NCBI RefSeq assembly: GCF_019232825.1
Contig: NZ_JAFAND010000110.1
Location: forward strand, 1-51,983
Direction: 5' to 3'
Length of the DNA: 51,983 nucleotides
Source of the DNA: Paludibacterium sp.
GTDB taxonomy: Bacteria > Pseudomonadota > Gammaproteobacteria > Burkholderiales > Chromobacteriaceae
A model generated the notes under the pieces. The model was not told where the DNA came from. It did no database searches and saw only the letters and a program-made list of their open reading frames with translations. Shown one piece after another: positions 25,765 to 46,682 of the stretch; position 1 is the first letter of the stretch; each line of letters opens with the position of its first letter. The position numbers and the translations under genes were made by a program.

Positions 25765-26787
25765 CTACAAAAGCGGCCAGCGCATGTCGTGGTCGAAGGT
25801 CAGCGATACGCCGCGTTCGGCGGTATCGTACAGATCGATGCGCGCGAGTTCGGGCACCAGCGGCGACAGGTGCATGTGCACCCATTCCGCCACCGAGGTG
25901 CTCTTACCGTTGCGGATGCCGGAGAGACGGTCGAGCGGGTTGTGGTCGAGCTGACGGTAGACCGGCTTGAAGCGGTCTTTGACGTCGCCGAAGTCGAGTA
26001 CCCAGCCCATCGTGCGGTCCAAGTCGCCGGTCAGCATCAGGCGAATCAGATAGCTGTGGCCGGTGTAGGCGCCGCTGGCGTCGAACGGCACGGCGCTTTC
26101 GAAGCGCTGCTCCTTCCAGATGTTGAAGCGCTGGCCATCGTATTGACTGCCCGCGCTGTGGGTCTCGCGCACTTCGACCCAGGCGAGCGCTGGCAATACC
26201 TCTCGCAGGCGTTCGAATAGCCATTTGGCCAGTACTTCGCTGGTCGGGTTGTCCAGGCCGTCGATGTCGTTCAGATAGTGGTGATTGAGCTGATCGAACA
26301 ACGGCAGCCAGGCCGCTTCCAACTGCATGTGGTCGCAACGGCTGGCATCGGCGAATAGCCTCACGCCGAAACGGTGGCCATGCAGGCGGCCGCATTTGTG
26401 GCCGGACGGCACTTGCGGCAATTGATGCGCGGCCTCGAACGAGACGTTGAGATGGATGAGCGCGGTCTGGTTGTCGACCAGCGCGCCACGGCGCGCCGAA
26501 CTTTGCAGCGCCAAGGTCACCGGGCTGGAAATGCTGTCGGCTAAAAAGCGCGCGATGCCCAGATCGCTCGGATCGGCCAGCGTGTCGTTGATCTGCGCGT
26601 AATCCAGCGCGGCGGCGGCATCGCGAAGCGCGGCTTCCAGCGAGGCTTGATCGGTATGGGTGGCGTCGGCGCGCGCCAACGCACGGAAGCTGTGTCCGTG
26701 CAGATTGACCAGGCGCTCGTCGGTGGCGCCGGGGATGCGCCTGGCGGCCTCGAAACCGGTGGCGGCCAACAGAAAGGTGGTATGCAT
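25765..26787 (-). CDS. queD: 6-carboxytetrahydropterin synthase with three T-fold-like segments
   Basis: Converts dihydroneopterin triphosphate to 6-carboxytetrahydropterin, the second queuosine step. Canonical QueD is about 120 residues; this one has 340. Segment 1 (about 1-110) keeps only HGH (30-32). Segment 2 (about 112-218) is the complete one, with FEAAHQLP (H121), HKCGRLHGH (C132, H136, H138), LNHHYLND, NPTSE and VRETHSAGSQY. Segment 3 (about 228-336) has the family block VLDFGDVKDRF (about 263-273) and QLDHNPLD but lacks the zinc triad. Segment 2 should be catalytic. The gene is 1 base from queC and 9 from queE. Confidence 0.92.
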   Translation of the reverse strand: MHTTFLLAATGFEAARRIPGATDERLVNLHGHSFRALARADATHTDQASLEAALRDAAAALDYAQINDTLADPSDLGIARFLADSISSPVTLALQSSARRGALVDNQTALIHLNVSFEAAHQLPQVPSGHKCGRLHGHRFGVRLFADASRCDHMQLEAAWLPLFDQLNHHYLNDIDGLDNPTSEVLAKWLFERLREVLPALAWVEVRETHSAGSQYDGQRFNIWKEQRFESAVPFDASGAYTGHSYLIRLMLTGDLDRTMGWVLDFGDVKDRFKPVYRQLDHNPLDRLSGIRNGKSTSVAEWVHMHLSPLVPELARIDLYDTAERGVSLTFDHDMRWPLL

Positions 26788-26788
26788 G

Positions 26789-27481
26789 TCAGCTCCGCGC
26801 GGTTCGCTCGATCAGCGGGTCGGCGACGCCGGCCTCGGCGAAGCCGCGCGCGCGCAGCCGGCACGAGTCGCACTCGCCGCATGGCGGCACCGCGCCGTTG
26901 TAGCAAGTATGGCTCCAGGCCATGGCCGCCATGGCGCCGACTTCCTCTGCCAGATGCACCGTTTCCGCCTTGGTCATGTACATCAGCGGCGCGTGCAGCG
27001 TGAGCCGCGGCGCGTCCATGCCGAGCCGGATGGCCAATTCCAACGCCTTGAGCGTGTTTTCGCGGCAGTCTGGGTAGCCGGAGTAATCCGTTTGCGCGAC
27101 GCCAGTGACGATATGGCCGATGCCGCGGGTGTAGGCCAGGGCGGCGGCGAAGGTCAGGAAAATCAGATTGCGTCCCGGCACGAAGGTATTGGGCAGCGCG
27201 TCGGTGTGCGCTTCGCCGGTTTGCGGCGTCAGCGAGGCATCGGTCAGGGCGTTGCCGCCGATGGCGGCAAAGGTGTCGATCGGCAGCACCGTTTGCGCCA
27301 CGCCGGCGAGTTTGGCGACGGTCGACGCCGCCTCCAGCTCGATGCGGTGGCGCTGGCCATAGTCGAAGGTGACCGCCGAGACGTTGGCCTGGCCAAAGCG
27401 GCGGATCGCCCAAAAGAGACAGGTTGTCGAGTCCTGGCCGCCGGAGAGCACCACCAGGGCCTTGTCGGTATGTTGTTCCAT
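26789..27481 (-). CDS. queC: 7-cyano-7-deazaguanine synthase
   Basis: ATP-dependent enzyme that makes preQ0 from 7-carboxy-7-deazaguanine and ammonia. 230 residues from ATG 27481 (MEQHTDKALVVLSGG), chosen because the ATP pyrophosphatase loop SGGQDSTTC follows directly; in-frame starts upstream at 27493 and beyond add unconserved residues. The zinc site is CYNGAVPPCGECDSC. It is the first gene of queC-queD-queE. I saw no preQ1 riboswitch upstream. Confidence 0.95.
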   Translation of the reverse strand: MEQHTDKALVVLSGGQDSTTCLFWAIRRFGQANVSAVTFDYGQRHRIELEAASTVAKLAGVAQTVLPIDTFAAIGGNALTDASLTPQTGEAHTDALPNTFVPGRNLIFLTFAAALAYTRGIGHIVTGVAQTDYSGYPDCRENTLKALELAIRLGMDAPRLTLHAPLMYMTKAETVHLAEEVGAMAAMAWSHTCYNGAVPPCGECDSCRLRARGFAEAGVADPLIERTARS

Positions 27482-27794
27482 GCAATGTTCCATCGATAAA
27501 CAGTCGAGGTCGCGGCACACGGGATCGGTCTCACCCGGCGCGGCGTCGGGCGCGTTGTCGCGCGCCCAAGGCAATCGCATAGTGTAGCCGTTTTCGCAAC
27601 GCGCCACCAGAATGCGCCTCGCCCGCACCATCGCCTCGCTGCACGCTTTATTTATGGCTCAAGCGTCGGCGGCTTGCATCCAGCCGGGAGAAAAGGGCGA
27701 GACGATCATCGGCAACGATGATCGTCAGAGGGTGTTGACTCACCCATGCTCGCGAAGCGAGCGCCCCCTCCCAGGGAGAGGGCAGGGGGAGGGA
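27482..27794. other. Intergenic region with terminator and REP-like hairpins
   Basis: No gene is supported. From queC outward it holds a TACACT -10-like element on the minus strand (near 27582), a perfect hairpin (27701-27726), and a compact structured block (27748-27782). The block contains GCTCGC-GAA-GCGAGC and CCCTCCC-A-GGGAGAGGG, the type of GC-rich palindromic repeat common between genes in proteobacteria. Confidence 0.5.
27701..27726 (-). terminator. Terminator of the small-peptide gene array
   Basis: An 11-bp perfect stem, GACGATCATCG (27701-27711) with CGATGATCGTC (27716-27726), closes a GCAA loop. On the minus strand it is followed by TCGCCCTTTT, so it can end transcripts coming from the four small genes before queC. 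Confidence 0.6.
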
Positions 27795-28058
27795 TCAAGA
27801 CTTGCGCCGAACGACGACGACCCGTTGGCCGTCACGGTTGGCGAGACATTGGACGGGGCTGAGCAGGCAGTTGAGCCGGTAAACCCGTGCGCCGGGCTGC
27901 TTGAGCTTGTCCTCCAGCGACAAGGCGCGCTCGTCCACGGGCGCGCGCGTCAGCGAGGGGGCGGCCGCGCCGGCGCGCGGCAACACCAGGCCGCAGAACA
28001 GTGCGGCGCACGCGCAGGCGGCAAGGAAGGGGGAGAACGGTTGGTTTTGTGTCGGCAT
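27795..28058 (-). CDS. Exported Cys-loop small protein, copy D
   Basis: 87 residues, one of four tandem paralogues (27795-28927); no known family recognised. The signal peptide spans about 8-33 (FSPFLAACACAALFCGLVLP, AGA-AAP cleavage). The mature part has LSLEDKLKQ (about 47-54), then YRLNCLLSPVQCL with C64 and C71 (CX6C), then a charged tail ending VVVVRRKS. Those two are the only cysteines after the signal peptide, so one small disulfide loop is likely. TAGGAG lies 6 bases before the ATG. The gene starts 8 bases after copy C stops. It is the most divergent core (LLSPV instead of YFSPI). Confidence 0.8.
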   Translation of the reverse strand: MPTQNQPFSPFLAACACAALFCGLVLPRAGAAAPSLTRAPVDERALSLEDKLKQPGARVYRLNCLLSPVQCLANRDGQRVVVVRRKS

Positions 28059-28066
28059 GAGGGCTC

Positions 28067-28282
28067 CTATGACCGCCGCAACACGTAGAGCGGTTCATTG
28101 CTGGCGTTGGGGAAGCATTGGATCGGGCTGAAATAGCAGTTGAACTTGAAGCGCACCACTTCCACTGCCGGCGCCTGTCCGGATGACGCCTCGGCGGCGC
28201 CGGCTAACAGCAGACAACATACCAGTGCCGCGCCAAAGCGGGCGAATCGGTTCGAAGGGGCGCGTCGAGAAGCGGTCGGCAT
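28067..28282 (-). CDS. Exported Cys-loop small protein, copy C (allatostatin-C-like core)
   Basis: 71 residues. Signal peptide about 12-32 (FARFGAALVCCLLLAGAAEA, cleavage near AEA-SS). The mature region is only about 40 residues: VVRFKFNCYFSPIQCF (43-57, cysteines C49 and C56), then PNASNEPLYVLRRS. The ribosome site AAAGGAA lies about 8 bases before ATG 28282. The core resembles insect allatostatin C (QVRFRQCYFNPISCF): VRF, CYF, PI and CF are shared once one residue is inserted before the first Cys. The receptor, partner and function in bacteria are unknown. Confidence 0.8.
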   Translation of the reverse strand: MPTASRRAPSNRFARFGAALVCCLLLAGAAEASSGQAPAVEVVRFKFNCYFSPIQCFPNASNEPLYVLRRS

Positions 28283-28308
28283 GGCTCGGTTCCTTTGTCT
28301 CGGAGGGA

Positions 28309-28536
28309 TTAGTCGTGCAAATACACGCACTGGATTGGGCTGAAATAGCAGTTGTGGGTGAACCGTTTGACGGCGCCGTTCCGGATCAGTTCGGCCAATT
28401 TGGATGAGTGCAGCCTGTTGGCGGTTGGCTGTTGCGCCGAGCGGGCCTCCGCGGCGAGGGCGGCGGGTGACATGACGCTGTGGCACAGCGCGCAGGCGAG
28501 AAGGCTGAATGTGGCGTGGCGGTGTTGGATGAACAT
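28309..28536 (-). CDS. Exported Cys-loop small protein, copy B (short tail)
   Basis: 75 residues from ATG 28536, preceded by AAAGGAATC. Signal peptide about 8-29 (ATFSLLACALCHSVMSPAALA, ALA-AEA cleavage). The mature part has SSKLAELIRNGAVKRF followed by THNCYFSPIQCVYLHD (cysteines C63 and C70). A dibasic KR lies six residues before the first Cys. It differs from its paralogues in ending five residues after the loop, without the VLRxKS tail. Gap to copy C is 26 bases; same strand and probably the same transcript. Confidence 0.8.
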   Translation of the reverse strand: MFIQHRHATFSLLACALCHSVMSPAALAAEARSAQQPTANRLHSSKLAELIRNGAVKRFTHNCYFSPIQCVYLHD

Positions 28537-28629
28537 GGATCGATTCCTTTCCATCTGGCTGTGGGGAACGTCCAACGGCTGTGGCCGCTGGATTACGTCT
28601 TCCACCGTAATCACACGCACGCAGCGGGG

Positions 28630-28652
28630 CCAGCCGCTGATGCCGCGGCTGG
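28630..28652 (-). other. Hairpin between copies A and B
   Basis: CCAGCCGC (28630-28637) and GCGGCTGG (28645-28652) form a perfect 8-bp stem about 25 bases after copy A stops, within the 139-bp gap. No U-tract follows on the minus strand. It could be a processing or stability element setting copy A apart from B-C-D. Confidence 0.4.
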
Positions 28653-28675
28653 CTGTGGGATTTGACTGATCCGGG

Positions 28676-28927
28676 CTACGATTTGGGCCGGAGGACGGAA
28701 AGGCGCAACTTATCGTTTCCCTTGAGCAGGCATTGAATGGGGCTGAAAAAGCAGTTCACCCGGTAGGGCCTGACCTCCATGTGTTTCAATTTTTCGGCCA
28801 GCGAGGCCGGGGGCGGCGCCGCGGCGGGCGCGGCGAAGCTCGCCTCCAGCCACAGCGATCCGCATAACAAGGCGGCCCCCATACCCGGGGTTAGGCAAAT
28901 TTTTTCCGTCACGCCATCAAAGCGCAT
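28676..28927 (-). CDS. Exported Cys-loop small protein, copy A (first of the array)
   Basis: 83 residues from ATG 28927 (MRFDGVTEK), with AAGAGGAG 8 bases upstream; an in-frame ATG 17 codons earlier is rejected. The hydrophobic signal segment is about 12-32 (LTPGMGAALLCGSLWLEASFA), cleavage near SFA-AP. The mature part has SLAEKLKHM, then YRVNCFFSPIQCLL (C59 and C66), then NDKLRLSVLRPKS. It shares the helix-like SLxxKLK, the NCxxSPxQC loop and the VLRxKS tail with copy D. The promoter probably lies in the 128 bases up to the divergent lipid kinase gene. Confidence 0.8.
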   Translation of the reverse strand: MRFDGVTEKICLTPGMGAALLCGSLWLEASFAAPAAAPPPASLAEKLKHMEVRPYRVNCFFSPIQCLLKGNDKLRLSVLRPKS

Positions 28928-29055
28928 GATGTCACTCCTCTTCTTGTGGGACCGGTTGACGACAACCGCCGCCATCATAATCAGAGGGGGGGCGCCTTGG
29001 CTGCTCCCCTTTATGCGGCTTGCGCTGTATGGCCGCTAACCCGTAACCTTCACTG

Positions 29056-29982
29056 ATGGCTCAACCGCATATTTGCTTCATTCTGCATGGGCGCCGCAGT
29101 CCCTCGCATTGGCCAGACCGGCTGTTGCGGCAGTTCTCTCGCCGCTTCGTCGTGCAAATTCACATCACCACCTCGGGCCTGCGCGCCGAGGAGGTGGCTT
29201 GCCTGGCCGTGACGCAAGGTTGCGATTTTGTCATCGCCGTGGGGGGCGACGGCACCGTGCACGAGGTGGTCAATGGCGTGATGCGCGCCCCGGCCGAACG
29301 GCGCGCGCGGGTGACGCTCGGTGTGTTGCCGGTCGGCACCGGCAATGACTTCGCCCGTTCGCTCGGCATGAGCGCCTCGGTGTCCCGGCTCTACCGGCTG
29401 ATTCAGCGCGACAGCGCGCGTTGGCTCGATCTGGGCCGCATCGACACGCTGGGCGAGGCGCCGTGGACGCGTTACTTCGCCAACATTGCCTCGCTCGGCG
29501 TCAGCTCGGCCGTGGTCGAGCGCGTCGCGCGCATGCCGCGCTGGCTGCCCGCCGGCCCCGCCTACGGCCTGGGCGCGGTGTTGTCGCTGTTGACCTGGCG
29601 GCCGTCGCGCATGCAGGTGACGTTTGACGAAGGCACGGTGATCGAGGAGCCGATGGTCGATCTCTGTCTGGCCAACGGGCGCTATTTCGGCGGGGGATTG
29701 GGGGTGGCGCCCGAGGCGCGCCAGGATGACGGTCTGTTGGACGTGGTCATGATCCGCAATGCCTCGGTGGTGGCGTTTCTACGCTTCATGCCGTTGATGC
29801 GCCAGACGCGCCGCATCGACGACGCGCGCGTGCGTTATGCCAAGAGCCGTGGCGTGCGGGTGAGCAGCGATCCCCCCGGTTGTCCGCTGGAAGCCGACGG
29901 CGAACAACTTGGCAGCGCGCCGGTGCGCGTGAGCGTGCTGCCCGGCGCTTTGCGCTGGCTCGGCTGCGAAAGCGGCCGCTAA
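29056..29982 (+). CDS. YegS/DagK-family lipid kinase
   Basis: 308 residues. The N-terminal DAGK catalytic domain has GGDGTVHEVVNGVM and VGTGNDFARSLG, the nucleotide-binding signatures of bacterial diacylglycerol/lipid kinases. The C-terminal beta domain (ANGRYFGGGLGVAPEA and DGLLDVVMIRN) is also typical. It probably phosphorylates a membrane lipid; the exact substrate is not evident. It is divergent from the small-peptide array and convergent with nemA. Confidence 0.9.
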   Translation: MAQPHICFILHGRRSPSHWPDRLLRQFSRRFVVQIHITTSGLRAEEVACLAVTQGCDFVIAVGGDGTVHEVVNGVMRAPAERRARVTLGVLPVGTGNDFARSLGMSASVSRLYRLIQRDSARWLDLGRIDTLGEAPWTRYFANIASLGVSSAVVERVARMPRWLPAGPAYGLGAVLSLLTWRPSRMQVTFDEGTVIEEPMVDLCLANGRYFGGGLGVAPEARQDDGLLDVVMIRNASVVAFLRFMPLMRQTRRIDDARVRYAKSRGVRVSSDPPGCPLEADGEQLGSAPVRVSVLPGALRWLGCESGR

Positions 29983-30019
29983 GCGGTGTCCCGTTGGGTT
30001 TTGTGTCATGCGTGTCTGT

Positions 30020-30132
30020 GGCGCACTGCCTTCGGCGAGTGCGCCCTAAGGGAAGATGCGTCCGGGGCGGTAGGGCGCAATCGCCGCGCGATGCGCGGCA
30101 TTGCGCCAAACACCTGACGGCACGCCCTAAGG
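30020..30132 (+). repeat. Structured dispersed repeat, copy 1
   Basis: About 112 bp, repeated at 42459-42570 in the same orientation. Two hairpins are visible: GGCGCACT-loop-AGTGCGCC and a longer one with GGCGCAAT and ATTGCGCC arms around CCGCGC/GCGCGG. In the first hairpin the second copy changes C-G to T-A on both arms (GGTGCACT/AGTGCACC), so pairing is kept. It lies between the lipid kinase stop and a terminator. Confidence 0.75.
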
Positions 30133-30134
30133 TC

Positions 30135-30167
30135 AAAAAAAGAAGCGGCCTGCATCAGGCCGCTTTT
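30135..30167. terminator. Bidirectional terminator between lipid kinase and nemA
   Basis: AAGCGGCCTG (30143-30152) and CAGGCCGCTT (30156-30165) form a 10-bp stem with a 3-base loop, an A-tract before it and TT after it, between two convergent genes. Confidence 0.85.
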
Positions 30168-30184
30168 GTTGATGCGGGAAGCGC

Positions 30185-31279
30185 TTACAGCGTCGGGTAG
30201 TCGGTATAGCCCTTGGCGCCGCCGCCGTAGAACGTGGCCAGATCGGGCTGGTTCAGCGCCGCGCCTTGCTGCAGACGTTCCGCCAAGTCGGGGTTGGCGA
30301 TGTAGCTGCGGCCGAACGCCACCGCGTCGGCATAGCCCTTGGCGATGACGGCTTCCGCCTTATCGCCGTCGTAGCCGCCGGCGGCGATGATCACGCCCGG
30401 ATATTCGGCGCGCACCGCTTGGCGGAACGCTTCGGTCAACGCCGGGCCGCCGGCCCAGTCTGGCTCCGAGATATGCAGGAACGCCAGTTTGCGCCGTGCC
30501 AGTTCCTTGACCAGGTAGTGCGCCATTTCTTCTTGGCCGACGTCCGACAAACCATTGAAGATGCCCAGCGGCGAGATACGGATGCCGACACGGTCCGCCG
30601 ACCATTCGCCCACCACGGCGTCGACCACTTCCAGCACCAGGCGGGCGCGGTTTTCGATGCTGCCGCCGTACGCGTCTGTGCGCAGGTTGGACTGCGGCGA
30701 CAAGAACTGTTGCAACAGATAGCCGTGCGCCGCGTGGATTTCCACCAAATCGAAGCCGGCGCGGCGCGCGTTGTCGGTGGCACGGCGATAGTCTTCGAGC
30801 AAGTCCTCGATTTCGGACACCTCCATCGCGCGCGGCTCGTCGCACGGCACGCGCGCCAGACCGCCGTCGGCGGTGCGCACGTTGGTGTTGCTGTCGGCGC
30901 GGATGGCCGACGGCGCGAGCGGCGCGTCATTGTCGGGTTGCAGCGAGCGATGCGAAATACGCCCGGTATGCCACAACTGCAAGGCGATCAGCCCGCCCGC
31001 CTGATGCACGCCGGCGGTCACCGGCTGCCAGGCGCGCACCTGTTCTTCGCTGTAGATGCCGGGCGCGCCGGCATAGCCCTTGGCGGTCGGCGAAATATGC
31101 GTGCCCTCGGCGATCAGGAGCCCGCCGCTGGCGCGCTGGCGGTAATAATCGACCGCGAGCGCGGTGGGCGCATCGCCCGGCTCGGTATTGCGCAGGCGCG
31201 TCAGCGGGGCCATCACTACGCGGTTTTTCAGGGTGACGGCACCGACTTTCAGCGGCGTGAACAGCTTGTCAAAGCTCAT
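30185..31279 (-). CDS. nemA: Old Yellow Enzyme, N-ethylmaleimide reductase type
   Basis: FMN-dependent ene-reductase that reduces electrophilic alkenes and nitro compounds with NAD(P)H. 364 residues with the OYE signatures [40 protein letters not shown] and the late [14 protein letters not shown]. The active-site His is in IHAAHGY. It follows the nitroreductase by 18 bases and should share its NemR-type operator. A detoxification role is inferred from family and regulation. Confidence 0.92.
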
Positions 31280-43062: not shown

Positions 43063-45171
43063 TTAGCCTTTTACCCCTTCATTGCCTGACGCCGCGCCGT
43101 CCGCCAACGACACCGCCCGGTCGGCCGAGGCGATGGTTTCCGGCCGGTGCGCGACGATGAGCCGCGTCAGTCTCAAGGCCGCCACGGCCTGATTCACCTG
43201 TTGTTCCAGCGCGCAGTCCAGACTGCTGGTCGCCTCGTCCAGGAGCAGGATGCGCGGCTGCTTGTACAGCGCGCGCGCCAGCAGCAGCCGCTGCTTTTGC
43301 CCGCCGGACAGTACCGAGCCCATGTCGCCGCAGAGCGTGTGGTAGCCCATCGGCATGGCGGCGATGGTGTCGTGCACGGCGGCCAGGCGCGCGCAGCGCT
43401 CGGCGCGGGCCGTGTCCGGCGCGGGATCGAAAAAGGTGATGTTGTCCAACAGCGAGCCGGCGAACAGCTGGTCGTCCTGCATGACGGTGGCGCACAGCGT
43501 GCGCGCGCCGTCGCTGCCCAGTTGCTTGAGCGGCACGCCGCCGATCAAAATCTCGCCGCGCGTCGGCGTAAGAATCCCGAGCAGCAGTTTGAGCACCGTG
43601 CTTTTGCCGCAGCCGCTCGGGCCGGTAAGCGCCACCGATTCGCCGTCGGCCACCTGGAAATGGAGCCCCTGCAACACCCAGGGCGCGTTGTCGTCGTGGC
43701 GGAACCAGACGTCGCGTAGCGCGATATCCGCCTGCTGAGGCAAGGCGCAGGCGGCGGCCGCGTACGCTTGCGGCGCGGTCAGGACGATGTCGGCCAGCCG
43801 CTCGCCCTGCAGGCGCAGCATCGCCAATGTCGACGCCTTGTCGATCAGCGCCTTGGTGCGCTCCGAGAATTGGCGCGCGTAGGCGGAGAAGGCCATGAAC
43901 ATGCCCACCGAGAAATGTTGCGCCAGTACGAGCTCGGCGCCGAACCACAGCAGCGCCGCGTATTCGAGCCCGGTCAGCAGCCGCTGCAGGCTGTTGTAGA
44001 GAATCTCCGCCCGGTCGGCGCGCACCGCGGCATGAATCTGCTCCACCAGCAAGTTGCTCCACACCGCCTGCCGCTCGGCCTGGCGCTGAAACAACTGAAT
44101 CGCCTGCATGCCGCGCAGGCTTTCCAGGAAGTGTCCTTCCTGTTTGGCCAACTGAATCATTTCGCGCTCCGCGCGCTCGCGCAGCGGCCGCTGGCCCGCC
44201 CAGCGCAGCAGCGTGTACAGCGCCAGGCTCGCCAGCGAGATCAACGTCAGCGTTGGGCTGTAGACCAGCATCAAGGCGCAGGTGCCGAGCGCCAGCAAGC
44301 CGTCGAGCAACGCCTCGATGCATTGATTGGTCAAGGTTTGCTGAATGGTGCCGACACAGCCGAAACGCGCGCTGATGTCGCCGATGAAACGTTTTTCGAA
44401 GAAGGACAACGGCAGGCGCAGCAAATGATGGAACACGCGCAAATACCAGTGCATGCCCACGATATGGCTGATCTGCAAGACGCTCCAGGCACGCACCGCG
44501 CCGATGCCGACCTCGCCCAGCAAGACCAGCAGAAAACCGCTGACCAACACCAGCAGCATATCGCGGTCGGCCGCCAGCATGACGCCGTCGACCAGCCATT
44601 GCGTGAACAGCGGCGCGCTCAAACCCAATAGCTCCAACGATAGTGCCAGCATGAACACCTGGGCGATGGCGTGGCGCAGCCCTTCGAAGCCGGTGAACCA
44701 TTGCCGCCAGGGAAAGCGCCGCCGTTGTTCGGTGGGACGGAACGTGTCGGTCGGCGTCAGCGTCAAGGCGATGCCGGTAAAGGCGCGATCGAGCTCCGAC
44801 CAGCCGACATGGCGCCGGCCTTGCGCCGGGTCGTGAATGCGGATGCCCTGTTTATCGACTGCGGCCAAGACGACGAAGTGGTTCATCTCCCAGTGCAGGA
44901 TGCAGGGGCAGGGGAGCTGCGCCAACTCCGCCGGTTCCAGCCGCAATGCACGCGCAGCCAGGCCGAGGGTATCGGCCATGCGCACCAGGTCGGCCAGCGT
45001 CGCGCCTTTGAGCGACGTGGCGAAACGTTGCCGCAGCAAGGGCAGGTCGACGCGATGGCCGTGAAAGGCCGCGACCATGCCCAGCGACGCCAAGCCGCAC
45101 TCGGCGGCTTCGCTTTGCAAATAAAGGGGGAGACGATGCCCGCCGCCGAACATGGCGGCCAGATTCACCAT
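43063..45171 (-). CDS. C39 peptidase-containing ABC exporter of double-glycine peptides
   Basis: 702 residues in one inner-membrane protein. The C39 cysteine peptidase domain (about 1-135) has a full catalytic set: Q19, C25 (QSEAAECGLASLG), H98 and D114 (HFVV...IHDPAQG). The membrane domain (about 160-440) follows, then the ATPase with Walker A GPSGCGKST (517-525), LSGGQ (621-625) and Walker B ILLLDEATSSLD. It should cut a precursor after GG and export the product. It overlaps the HlyD-type gene by 7 bases; the candidate cargo lies upstream at 46515-46682. Confidence 0.93.
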   Translation of the reverse strand: MVNLAAMFGGGHRLPLYLQSEAAECGLASLGMVAAFHGHRVDLPLLRQRFATSLKGATLADLVRMADTLGLAARALRLEPAELAQLPCPCILHWEMNHFVVLAAVDKQGIRIHDPAQGRRHVGWSELDRAFTGIALTLTPTDTFRPTEQRRRFPWRQWFTGFEGLRHAIAQVFMLALSLELLGLSAPLFTQWLVDGVMLAADRDMLLVLVSGFLLVLLGEVGIGAVRAWSVLQISHIVGMHWYLRVFHHLLRLPLSFFEKRFIGDISARFGCVGTIQQTLTNQCIEALLDGLLALGTCALMLVYSPTLTLISLASLALYTLLRWAGQRPLRERAEREMIQLAKQEGHFLESLRGMQAIQLFQRQAERQAVWSNLLVEQIHAAVRADRAEILYNSLQRLLTGLEYAALLWFGAELVLAQHFSVGMFMAFSAYARQFSERTKALIDKASTLAMLRLQGERLADIVLTAPQAYAAAACALPQQADIALRDVWFRHDDNAPWVLQGLHFQVADGESVALTGPSGCGKSTVLKLLLGILTPTRGEILIGGVPLKQLGSDGARTLCATVMQDDQLFAGSLLDNITFFDPAPDTARAERCARLAAVHDTIAAMPMGYHTLCGDMGSVLSGGQKQRLLLARALYKQPRILLLDEATSSLDCALEQQVNQAVAALRLTRLIVAHRPETIASADRAVSLADGAASGNEGVKG

Positions 45172-46421
45172 TTGCCGCTCACGCTATAGAGCGGTTCCAG
45201 CACCCATTCATACAGCCGGCGTCTGTCGAGCAGCAGATCGGCTTCGAGCCGCATGGCCGGCATCAACGGCATGGCGCGGCCATAGGCCTGTATGTCGGCG
45301 CGGTCCAGCTGTACGCGGATGCGATAGAGGGATTCGCGCGCGTCGGTCGGCAGATCTATTTCTTGCGGCAACAGCGCGGAGCGGGCGACCGAGACCACGC
45401 GGCCGCTGATGTGGCCGAATTTCTGATAGGGAAAGGCATCCAGGCGCAATTTGACCGCCGTGCCGGGGCGGATGAAGCCGACCGCCTTGCTCGGCGCATA
45501 GAGATGCGCTTCCAGTCGCGCATCGGCGGGAACCAGCAAGGCGAGCGGCTGTTGCACGGCGGCCGGGGCGCCCGCGCTGGCGGTGACCGCCGCCAGGGTG
45601 CCCGCGCGTGGCGCGGTCACTTGCCAACGGTGGCCGGCTTGATGCTGCGCGGTTTCCTGCCGCAGCGCTTCGGTGGTCCGTCGCAGCGTCTCGTGCTGAT
45701 CTTGCTGCCGCAGCGGCTGCTCGCCGAGCTCGGCGGCGATGCCGGCCTGTTCGCGCCGCAAGCCGTCGAGCGCGCGCGTCTGCGCCAGCCAGGCGCGCTG
45801 TGCTTCCAGGCGCTCCTCTTCCTTTTGCTGCAGCTGCGCGGGGGAAATGAAGCCCTCGGCTGCGAGTTGGTTGAAGCGCTGCCAAGCCTGCTGGGCCAAG
45901 GCGCGTTTGCGCGCCAACAGATGCGCCTCCTGTTCCGCGCGGGCGATCTCGCCGGTGAGAAGCCGCAGCCGCCGTTGCAGGTCGGCCCGCTGCATGGCGC
46001 CGAGCTGTTGCATGGCCGCGATGCTGGCCGCCAGCGATTGCAGCCGGGCGGCCAACGCCTCGGCGATGCGTTGCTGGGTTGGCCCGAGGGCGCTTTGCCG
46101 CTCGGCGCTGAGCGTGAACAGCGCCTGCCCGGCGCGCACGGTCTCGCCTTGCTCCACATGCCGCGCCTCGACGATGCCGGCTTGTCCCGGATAGAGCCGC
46201 AATACTTGGTCGCCGGGCTGGATCTGCCCGGCGACGGTCACCCGCCGGGTATAACTGCCCCAGTAAAGCCAGGCGATGGCCAGCGCGATCAGTAGGCTAA
46301 ATAGATAAACCAACAGCGTGGTGCGCAGCGGCAGCGTGCAGTCGGGGCGGCCGAGCCGCTGGTCGGACTGGGCTTCGACCGCCGCTGGACGAAAGAGCGG
46401 CGGAAAGGAGGGGTTCGTCAT
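45165..46421 (-). CDS. HlyD-family periplasmic adaptor for the peptide exporter
   Basis: 418 residues from ATG 46421 (MTNPSFPPLFRPAAVEAQ). One N-terminal membrane anchor (about 32-52, LLVYLFSLLIALAIAWLYWG), a lipoyl/barrel segment, a long coiled-coil hairpin (about 105-245, rich in Gln, Arg, Leu and Ala) and a C-terminal beta-barrel. It links the inner-membrane ABC exporter to an outer-membrane channel. No TolC-like gene is present here, so a channel elsewhere is probably used. Confidence 0.92.
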   Translation of the reverse strand: MTNPSFPPLFRPAAVEAQSDQRLGRPDCTLPLRTTLLVYLFSLLIALAIAWLYWGSYTRRVTVAGQIQPGDQVLRLYPGQAGIVEARHVEQGETVRAGQALFTLSAERQSALGPTQQRIAEALAARLQSLAASIAAMQQLGAMQRADLQRRLRLLTGEIARAEQEAHLLARKRALAQQAWQRFNQLAAEGFISPAQLQQKEEERLEAQRAWLAQTRALDGLRREQAGIAAELGEQPLRQQDQHETLRRTTEALRQETAQHQAGHRWQVTAPRAGTLAAVTASAGAPAAVQQPLALLVPADARLEAHLYAPSKAVGFIRPGTAVKLRLDAFPYQKFGHISGRVVSVARSALLPQEIDLPTDARESLYRIRVQLDRADIQAYGRAMPLMPAMRLEADLLLDRRRLYEWVLEPLYSVSGKW

Positions 46422-46514
46422 TGCGCGGCGATTCTCCCGTGAAAGGATCGGGGCGGTCCGCGTGGGCGGGCCGCCCCGATGCCTAGGGTCCATTGAGGTC
46501 AGAAGACAGGACGA

Positions 46515-46682
46515 TTAGTTCTTCTTGGGCTTGCTACCATCCCCGGGCGGCAGGGTTTGGCGCCCTCCGGAGGCGTTTGGGCGCGCTTGGCGCTCCCGGC
46601 TGGCATCCTTTCTGGACTGCCTTTCGCGGTATTCCCGCCCACCGCTGACTTTGTCGAGTTGCTGGATATCGATGATATGCAT
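46515..46682 (-). CDS. Double-glycine-leader peptide precursor, arginine-rich product
   Basis: 55 residues from ATG 46682, with AAGGAG 9 bases upstream. The leader MHIIDIQQLDKVSGG (1-15) is a classical double-glycine leader (LxxVSGG). The predicted product REYRERQSRKDAS...PGDGSKPKKN is 40 residues, strongly basic (12 Arg/Lys against 5 Asp/Glu), without Cys, and hydrophilic with a Pro/Gly-rich end. A second SGG occurs at 38-40. It lies 93 bases before the adaptor gene on the same strand, so it is the likely cargo of the C39 exporter. Antibacterial peptide or signal are both possible. Confidence 0.75.
   Translation of the reverse strand: MHIIDIQQLDKVSGGREYRERQSRKDASRERQARPNASGGRQTLPPGDGSKPKKN

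What the first reader, a model, noticed from the sequence alone, without database searches (positions are those of the whole stretch)
27795..28927. Array of four paralogous exported small proteins with a conserved NCxxSPxQC loop
Four consecutive minus-strand genes (28676-28927, 28309-28536, 28067-28282, 27795-28058) encode 71-87 residue proteins. Each has a different signal peptide but the same core: N-C-[YFL]-[FL]-S-P-[IV]-Q-C-[LFV]. All have a good ribosome site. The only cysteines after each signal peptide are the two of the loop, so one CX6C disulfide is expected after export. Codons for the same core residues differ between copies (Pro CCC/CCA/CCG, Gln CAA/CAG, Ile ATT/ATC), which points to old duplication kept by selection on the protein. 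I recognise no described bacterial family. A family of secreted disulfide-loop peptides, as signals, effectors or inhibitors, is the best guess.
Basis: partly seen in the sequence, partly recalled or inferred. Interest (0 to 1): 0.95.

Follow-up and report, generated by a model that had tools for sequence, protein, structure and literature searches.

The report
Orphan cassette of exported disulfide-loop peptides
One bacterial species carries a four-gene cassette, not found in its sampled relatives, for small exported proteins that keep only a cysteine ring constant, and that ring looks much like an arthropod hormone (allatostatin C), a lead worth a simple receptor test but not yet shown to mean anything.

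Summary
Observation confirmed: four minus-strand ORFs (83, 75, 71, 87 aa), each with a ribosome site, an export-type leader and the core NC[YFL][FL]SP[IV]QC. Between copies the nine core codons have pS 0.50-0.75 but pN 0-0.19; the nine codons upstream have pN 0.45-0.71, so selection keeps the ring. In 4 of 4 congeners whose site was seen, queC lies next to dagK; the window has about 1.3 kb extra there, the array. No relative was found in Pfam, NCBIfam, PHROGs, PDB sequences, plasmids, phages, 60 other family genomes, samples of order, class and phylum, or by a strict pattern in 84,980 species (own species may be left out there). The ring resembles arthropod allatostatin C (copy 3 CYFSPIQCF against CYFNPISCF; of 200,000 Cys-fixed shuffles 7, 2, 3 and 1,295 do as well for copies 1-4). 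The comparison was chosen after seeing the sequence; copy 4 fits poorly, and ring residues and C-terminus of the hormone are not matched. Best reading: exported cyclic peptide ligands, partner unknown. Hormone mimicry about 0.15.

The parts
28676..28927 (-). copy 1, 83 aa, core NCFFSPIQC (DNA 28730-28756)
28309..28536 (-). copy 2, 75 aa, core NCYFSPIQC (28327-28353); ends 5 residues after the ring, lacks the basic tail
28067..28282 (-). copy 3, 71 aa, core NCYFSPIQC (28115-28141); closest to allatostatin C (VRFKFNCYFSPIQCF)
27795..28058 (-). copy 4, 87 aa, core NCLLSPVQC (27846-27872); ribosome site overlaps the stop of copy 3
27670..28998 (.). approximate extent of the DNA absent between queC and dagK in congeners; left edge somewhere in 27598-27690, right edge near 28999 by the nearest congener, not resolved to the base
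28530..28680 (-). structured spacer between copies 1 and 2 (strong hairpins; z -3.12, 1 of 200 shuffles as good)
27660..27800 (-). hairpin-rich stretch downstream of copy 4 (z -4.86, 0 of 200 shuffles as good); no T-run terminator found by the scan
27728..27791 (.). 64-nt dispersed repeat, at least 19 further strong copies in the same genome; no listed match over this stretch in 5 congeners

Best explanation
A four-gene cassette, found only in this lineage between queC and dagK, encodes exported small proteins whose working part is the 8-residue disulfide ring C-[YFL]-[FL]-S-P-[IV]-Q-C. After Sec export (inferred) the ring is closed in the periplasm by the Dsb system (inferred) and the ring, carried on a variable, mostly basic stem, binds one kind of partner outside the cytoplasm as a peptide ligand (inferred). 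Duplication gave four variants with diverged leaders and flanks while the ring stayed nearly fixed (shown by the codon comparison). The identity of the partner is open: an arthropod allatostatin C type receptor is the best-specified candidate; other bacteria or the cell's own surface are alternatives.
For: Export-type leaders, ribosome sites and exactly two mature Cys in 4 of 4 copies, cuts chosen by eye. Core pN 0-0.19 with pS 0.50-0.75, upstream nine codons pN 0.45-0.71, in six pairs. GC3 of the copies 0.72-0.84, of 21 long ORFs of the window 0.84 +/- 0.03, as expected of coding DNA. Empty site in 4 of 4 congeners with dagK found. Mature pI 8.8-10.4.
Against: No expression or peptide data. 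No orthologue, so no independent test of constraint; the core comparison rests on 4-5 synonymous sites per pair. The nearest genes by Pfam are queuosine genes, dagK and an old-yellow-enzyme gene; no exporter, processing enzyme, receptor or regulator was recognised beside the array. No sigma-70-like promoter found by the scan (0; 0.3 expected by chance). AlphaFold2 gives no confident fold (mean pLDDT 48.0, pTM 0.16). Three of four copies share a C-terminal tail, which suggests that more than the ring may matter.
Confidence: 0.55

Rival explanations
1. Hormone mimicry: the ring acts on arthropod allatostatin C (somatostatin-like) receptors, for instance to dampen IMD-type immunity or feeding in an arthropod that the bacterium meets.
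For: Same CX6C spacing; non-Cys identities with the closest AST-C form over 7 positions: 3, 4, 5 and 1 for copies 1-4; random CX6C loops reach the observed BLOSUM score with P 5.9e-5, 1.3e-5, 0 of 2 million and 8.2e-3. A V-R-aromatic-basic motif lies before the ring in copies 1 and 3, with one or two extra residues. Cys-fixed shuffles reaching the observed alignment score: 7, 2, 3 and 1,295 of 200,000 for copies 1-4; of 254 real CX6C segments 0 reach 46 (copy 1) and 2 reach 32 (copy 4). AstC-R2 inhibits the IMD pathway in Drosophila (PMC5951828, abstract). A bacterial mimic of a plant peptide hormone is known, RaxX (PMC6637879, start of abstract in listing).
Against: Comparison picked after seeing the sequence; four paralogues are one observation; copy 4 is hardly alike. 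The N and S of the hormone ring are S and Q in 4 of 4 copies. AST-C ends one residue after the ring, these go on for 5-17. Only copy 3 has the F after the ring. One of 307 loops in a biased control reached the score of copy 1.
Confidence: 0.15
2. Antibacterial or competitor-directed peptides (bacteriocin-like), with the variable stem or leader setting specificity.
For: Basic mature forms, pI 8.8-10.4; lineage-restricted cassette; the same contig has a separate bacteriocin-type export locus.
Against: No immunity gene or double-glycine leader recognised; the ring is uncharged and nearly constant rather than variable.
Confidence: 0.2
3. Periplasmic or envelope small proteins of the cell itself (binding or stress role), with the ring as a fold staple.
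For: Leaders fit Sec export to the periplasm; C-terminal tail shared by copies 1, 3, 4.
Against: A mere staple need not keep N, S, P and Q invariant; presence in one sampled species is unusual for a housekeeping role.
Confidence: 0.2
4. Pheromone for cell-to-cell signalling within the species.
For: Precursor architecture: constant small core in divergent precursors.
Against: No sensor kinase or regulator among the neighbours scanned with Pfam; four near-identical signals are hard to explain.
Confidence: 0.12
5. Canonical serine protease inhibitor loop of the Bowman-Birk type, P1 = F or L before an invariant Ser.
For: C-x-x-S-P-x-x-C recalls CTP1SXPPXC (motif from PMC7760496, start of abstract in listing).
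Against: Ring is 8 residues, not 9; only 2 of the 4 fixed residues match even with a deletion allowed, in 4 of 4 copies.
Confidence: 0.06
6. Decaying or unexpressed ORFs.
For: No homologue found; no promoter-like site found.
Against: pN far below pS in the core, four intact frames with ribosome sites.
Confidence: 0.05

Closest known systems
Allatostatin C (PISCF) peptides of arthropods
   Same: CX6C ring with Y-F-x-P-I at the same places in copies 2 and 3; V-R-aromatic-basic motif before the ring in copies 1 and 3; several paralogous genes (three in many arthropods, PMC6008092 passages)
   Different: S and Q instead of N and S in the ring; 5-17 residues follow the ring; bacterial export leader; resemblance too short to show homology
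Bowman-Birk type inhibitor loops (SFTI-1 and frog peptides)
   Same: Small disulfide ring with hydrophobic residue, then Ser, then Pro
   Different: Ring one residue shorter; Thr and second Pro missing
RaxX of Xanthomonas (mimic of plant PSY hormones)
   Same: Small bacterial precursor of a hormone-like peptide (as a way of working, if the mimic reading holds)
   Different: raxSTAB-like partner genes not seen beside the array (neighbours); no sequence relation recognised
Class II bacteriocins and microcins
   Same: Small basic exported peptides, often with one disulfide (recalled)
   Different: No double-glycine leader, and no immunity gene or exporter recognised beside the array

Membership tests
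Allatostatin C (PISCF) | disulfide ring of CX6C spacing | tested here: met
   spacing in 4 of 4 copies; the bond itself is inferred
Allatostatin C (PISCF) | ring sequence C-x-F-N-[PA]-[IV]-S-C as in the AST-C forms read | tested here: not met
   N is S and S is Q in 4 of 4 copies
Allatostatin C (PISCF) | peptide ends one residue after the second Cys | tested here: not met
   17, 5, 15 and 16 residues follow in copies 1-4 (Cys positions); processing unknown
Allatostatin C (PISCF) | activates AST-C receptors | not testable with these tools
   needs a receptor assay
Bowman-Birk inhibitors | nine-residue loop CTP1SXPPXC | tested here: not met
   eight-residue ring, 2 of 4 fixed residues with one deletion
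Class II bacteriocin / microcin with C39 exporter | double-glycine leader | tested here: not met
   no GG in any of the four proteins (read by eye); Gly-Ala does occur in the leaders of copies 3 and 4, which are otherwise hydrophobic Sec-like leaders, so a GA-type leader was not formally excluded
Any family in Pfam-A, NCBIfam, PHROGs | match above curated cut-off or E <= 0.001 | tested here: not met
   0 of 4 proteins; chance rows E 0.07-0.35
Anti-phage defence proteins (PADLOC) | match to a PADLOC model | not tested
   library not searched
Sec-exported proteins | n-region, hydrophobic core, AxA cleavage site | tested here: inconclusive
   hydropathy and site reading only; copies 3 and 4 strong, 1 and 2 moderate

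The most novel reading that the evidence does not exclude
A bacterium makes a set of exported cyclic peptides that imitate the arthropod hormone allatostatin C and act on its somatostatin-like receptors: convergent hormone mimicry of an animal neuropeptide by a bacterial gene family.
Probability: 0.15. Interest if true: 0.95.

Novelty: new variant of a known kind. Interest (0 to 1): 0.6.

Why it matters
As it stands it is an orphan family of exported ring peptides, seen in one sampled species, with clear selection on the ring against free drift around it. If the ring acts on allatostatin C receptors, it would be a bacterial mimic of an arthropod neuropeptide hormone, a new way for a bacterium to steer arthropod immunity or feeding, and it can be settled with short synthetic peptides in a standard receptor assay.

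Tried and rejected
Homologue hunts that gave only what I judge chance matches. Own genome with copy 3, E <= 10: 7 rows, 4 the array, 3 others (E 0.06-0.53) not read. Profile A1 in 5 congeners: rows at E 0.049 or worse in 4 of 5, not read one by one. Core pattern: 0 of 60 other family genomes. A looser allatostatin-like pattern in 20 other genomes of the order: 1 match (L047, not followed), and 2 in the backward control. Profile A2: family, 7 of 60 others with a row at E <= 0.1, 8 rows, all read; order, 4 of 398 others at E <= 0.01, 4 rows; class, 7 of 368, 8 rows; phylum, 8 of 397, 8 rows; all these rows were read and none is a short leader-bearing protein with the ring, as judged by eye. The samples overlap. 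In one search L052 and L055 were read on the wrong strand or frame; both were read again. Strict pattern (Ser as AGY only) in the collection of 84,980 species: 12 stretches, 12 read; it misses TCN serines and changed rings. Viral contigs: 1 stretch, 7 stretches with TCN serine, all read; exact AST-C ring 0. Plasmids and phages by tblastn with copy 1 only: 0, and 2 records of one phage at E 3 under a portal gene; array DNA in plasmids 0. PDB sequences: 0 for copy 3, 2 rows at E 0.8 for the profile. Rfam over 26000-30500: 0.

Structure prediction of copy 1 with the four-sequence alignment gave no usable model, so no fold search was made. Bowman-Birk loop weighed and set low. Thanatin-like CX6C antibacterial hairpins were considered from recall only and set aside since that ring is basic.

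Controls for AST-C likeness: the first (307 CX6C loops) included loci fetched by the core pattern or profile, so it leans towards the core; 1 of 307 reached the score of copy 1, 0 those of copies 2 and 3, 13 that of copy 4. The second (254 segments from 39 sources) leaves out the pattern-chosen loci and any segment with SPIQC or SPVQC, but still holds loci that were weak rows. Two things remain untested: how many known peptides one would have been ready to compare with, and the non-independence of the four copies.

Full report
What is there. Four ORFs on the minus strand, 28676-28927, 28309-28536, 28067-28282 and 27795-28058, encode 83, 75, 71 and 87 residues. Each has a purine-rich ribosome site ending 5-7 bases before ATG; that of copy 4 overlaps the stop of copy 3. 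Each starts with an export-type leader followed by AxA-like sites; with cuts chosen by eye each mature form (39-56 aa, pI 8.8-10.4) has two Cys, both in the ring. Beyond the ring the copies share weakly a leucine- and lysine-rich stretch before it (copies 1, 2, 4), an aromatic residue and Asn before it and, in copies 1, 3 and 4, a C-terminal V-[LV]-R-[PR]-(K)-S tail. Copy 2 stops five residues after the ring.

Selection. Over the nine core codons the six pairs have 2.0-3.8 synonymous differences on 4-5 sites (pS 0.50-0.75) and 0-4.2 nonsynonymous differences on 22-23 sites (pN 0-0.19). The nine codons upstream have pS 0.57-0.82 and pN 0.45-0.71. The numbers of sites are small, but the contrast is the same in all six pairs. 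The 58-nt DNA repeat seen on the plus strand is this core; the antisense frame is open too and has 5 of 17 identical columns against 6 of 17, yet within the invariant codons (Pro, Gln, Cys) the varying bases are third positions of the sense frame. GC3 of the copies (0.72, 0.77, 0.82, 0.84) is close to that of 21 long ORFs of the window (0.84 +/- 0.03).

Setting. The array lies between queC and a diacylglycerol-kinase-like gene, here dagK (QueC and DAGK_cat/YegS_C by Pfam). Of five congeners four have the kinase gene, and in 4 of 4 queC lies about 200-250 bases from it; in the window the distance is about 1.57 kb. Alignment with the two nearest congeners puts the extra DNA at roughly 27670-28998, with the left edge uncertain by some tens of bases. 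The fifth congener (G005) had no kinase match, so its site was not seen. The simplest reading is a gain in this lineage; but the copies are more diverged from each other than a recent local duplication would allow, so the array may have been acquired ready-made from an unsampled source, or lost by the others; this is inference. I saw no transposase- or integrase-like ORF in the extra DNA (ORF list). A 64-nt hairpin repeat, 27728-27791, just downstream of copy 4, has at least 19 other strong copies in this genome (40 of 108 candidates were scored, so this is a lower bound); no listed match in the five congeners overlaps it (30 to 40 candidates scored in each).

Relatives. None found. Pfam, NCBIfam and PHROGs: 0 of 4 proteins above threshold. 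PDB sequences: none for copy 3, two chance rows for the profile. Genomes: 0 of 60 other family members by pattern; by profile A2 only low-scoring rows (up to 21 bits, against 63-88 for the four copies) in 399 order, 369 class, 398 phylum and 61 family genomes, own genome counted in each and samples overlapping. These rows were read, and none is a short leader-bearing protein with the ring. A strict pattern over the collection of 84,980 species gave 12 stretches, all chance by their reading frames; records of the window's own species may be left out there. Plasmids, phages and viral contigs gave nothing convincing.

What it may do. The shape - a constant small ring in fast-diverging precursors - is that of peptide ligands. 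While reading copy 3 I recalled arthropod allatostatin C; the published forms (QVRYRQCYFNPISCF in Drosophila, PMC8816919 passage; three lobster forms, PMC6008092 passages) were then taken from the papers. The hormone has a disulfide between Cys7 and Cys14, as PMC11087482 says (passage), the same CX6C ring. Local alignment gives VRFKFNCYFSPIQCF against VRYR-QCYFNPISCF for copy 3 and EVRPYRVNCFFSPIQC against QVR-YR-QCYFNPISC for copy 1. Identities over the seven non-Cys positions are 3, 4, 5 and 1 for copies 1-4. Of 200,000 shuffles with Cys fixed, 7, 2, 3 and 1,295 reach the observed score for copies 1-4; of 254 real CX6C segments none reaches the score of copy 1, 2 or 3, and 2 reach that of copy 4. 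Against it: the choice was after the fact; the four copies are one event; copy 4 is hardly alike; two ring residues that are constant in the hormone forms I read are changed in all copies; the hormone ends right after the ring and these do not; and nothing is known of an arthropod host. A reason why a Gram-negative bacterium could profit exists: AstC-R2 inhibits the IMD pathway (PMC5951828, abstract). I give the mimic reading 0.15.

Rivals. Antibacterial peptides (0.2) and periplasmic proteins of the cell itself (0.2) are as likely or likelier; a pheromone (0.12), a Bowman-Birk-like inhibitor (0.06) and dead ORFs (0.05) are less so. These odds are judgement. The Bowman-Birk loop has nine residues (PMC7760496, start of abstract in listing), these rings eight. 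AlphaFold2 on copy 1 with the four-sequence alignment gave mean pLDDT 48.0 and pTM 0.16, so structure does not help.

In print. Searches for allatostatin with bacterial or mimicry terms (11 papers; 16; 0), for neuropeptide mimics, bacteria and insect hosts (10 listed of 2,707) and for three ring sequences themselves (0 papers) showed no report of such bacterial peptides; of these I saw titles and starts of abstracts only, apart from the papers named above. Only open-licence PubMed Central papers were searched.

Noticed in passing
43063-46682 (-): ABC exporter with Peptidase_C39 domain, HlyD-family partner (Pfam), and a 55-aa ORF (46515-46682) with a double-glycine-type leader MHIIDIQQLDKVSGG and a good ribosome site: looks like a bacteriocin/microcin-type export locus with a likely substrate.
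   Followed up: partly
27728-27791: 64-nt hairpin repeat dispersed in this genome (at least 19 more strong copies, 4 of them at contig ends), with no listed match over it in five congeners; a REP-like element.
   Followed up: partly
28530-28680: Strong hairpins in the spacer after copy 1 (z -3.12), possibly setting different expression of copy 1 and copies 2-4.
   Followed up: no
28115-28141 and the other three cores, + strand: The antisense frame over each core is open and also partly alike among copies, a consequence of codon register; worth remembering when annotating.
   Followed up: yes
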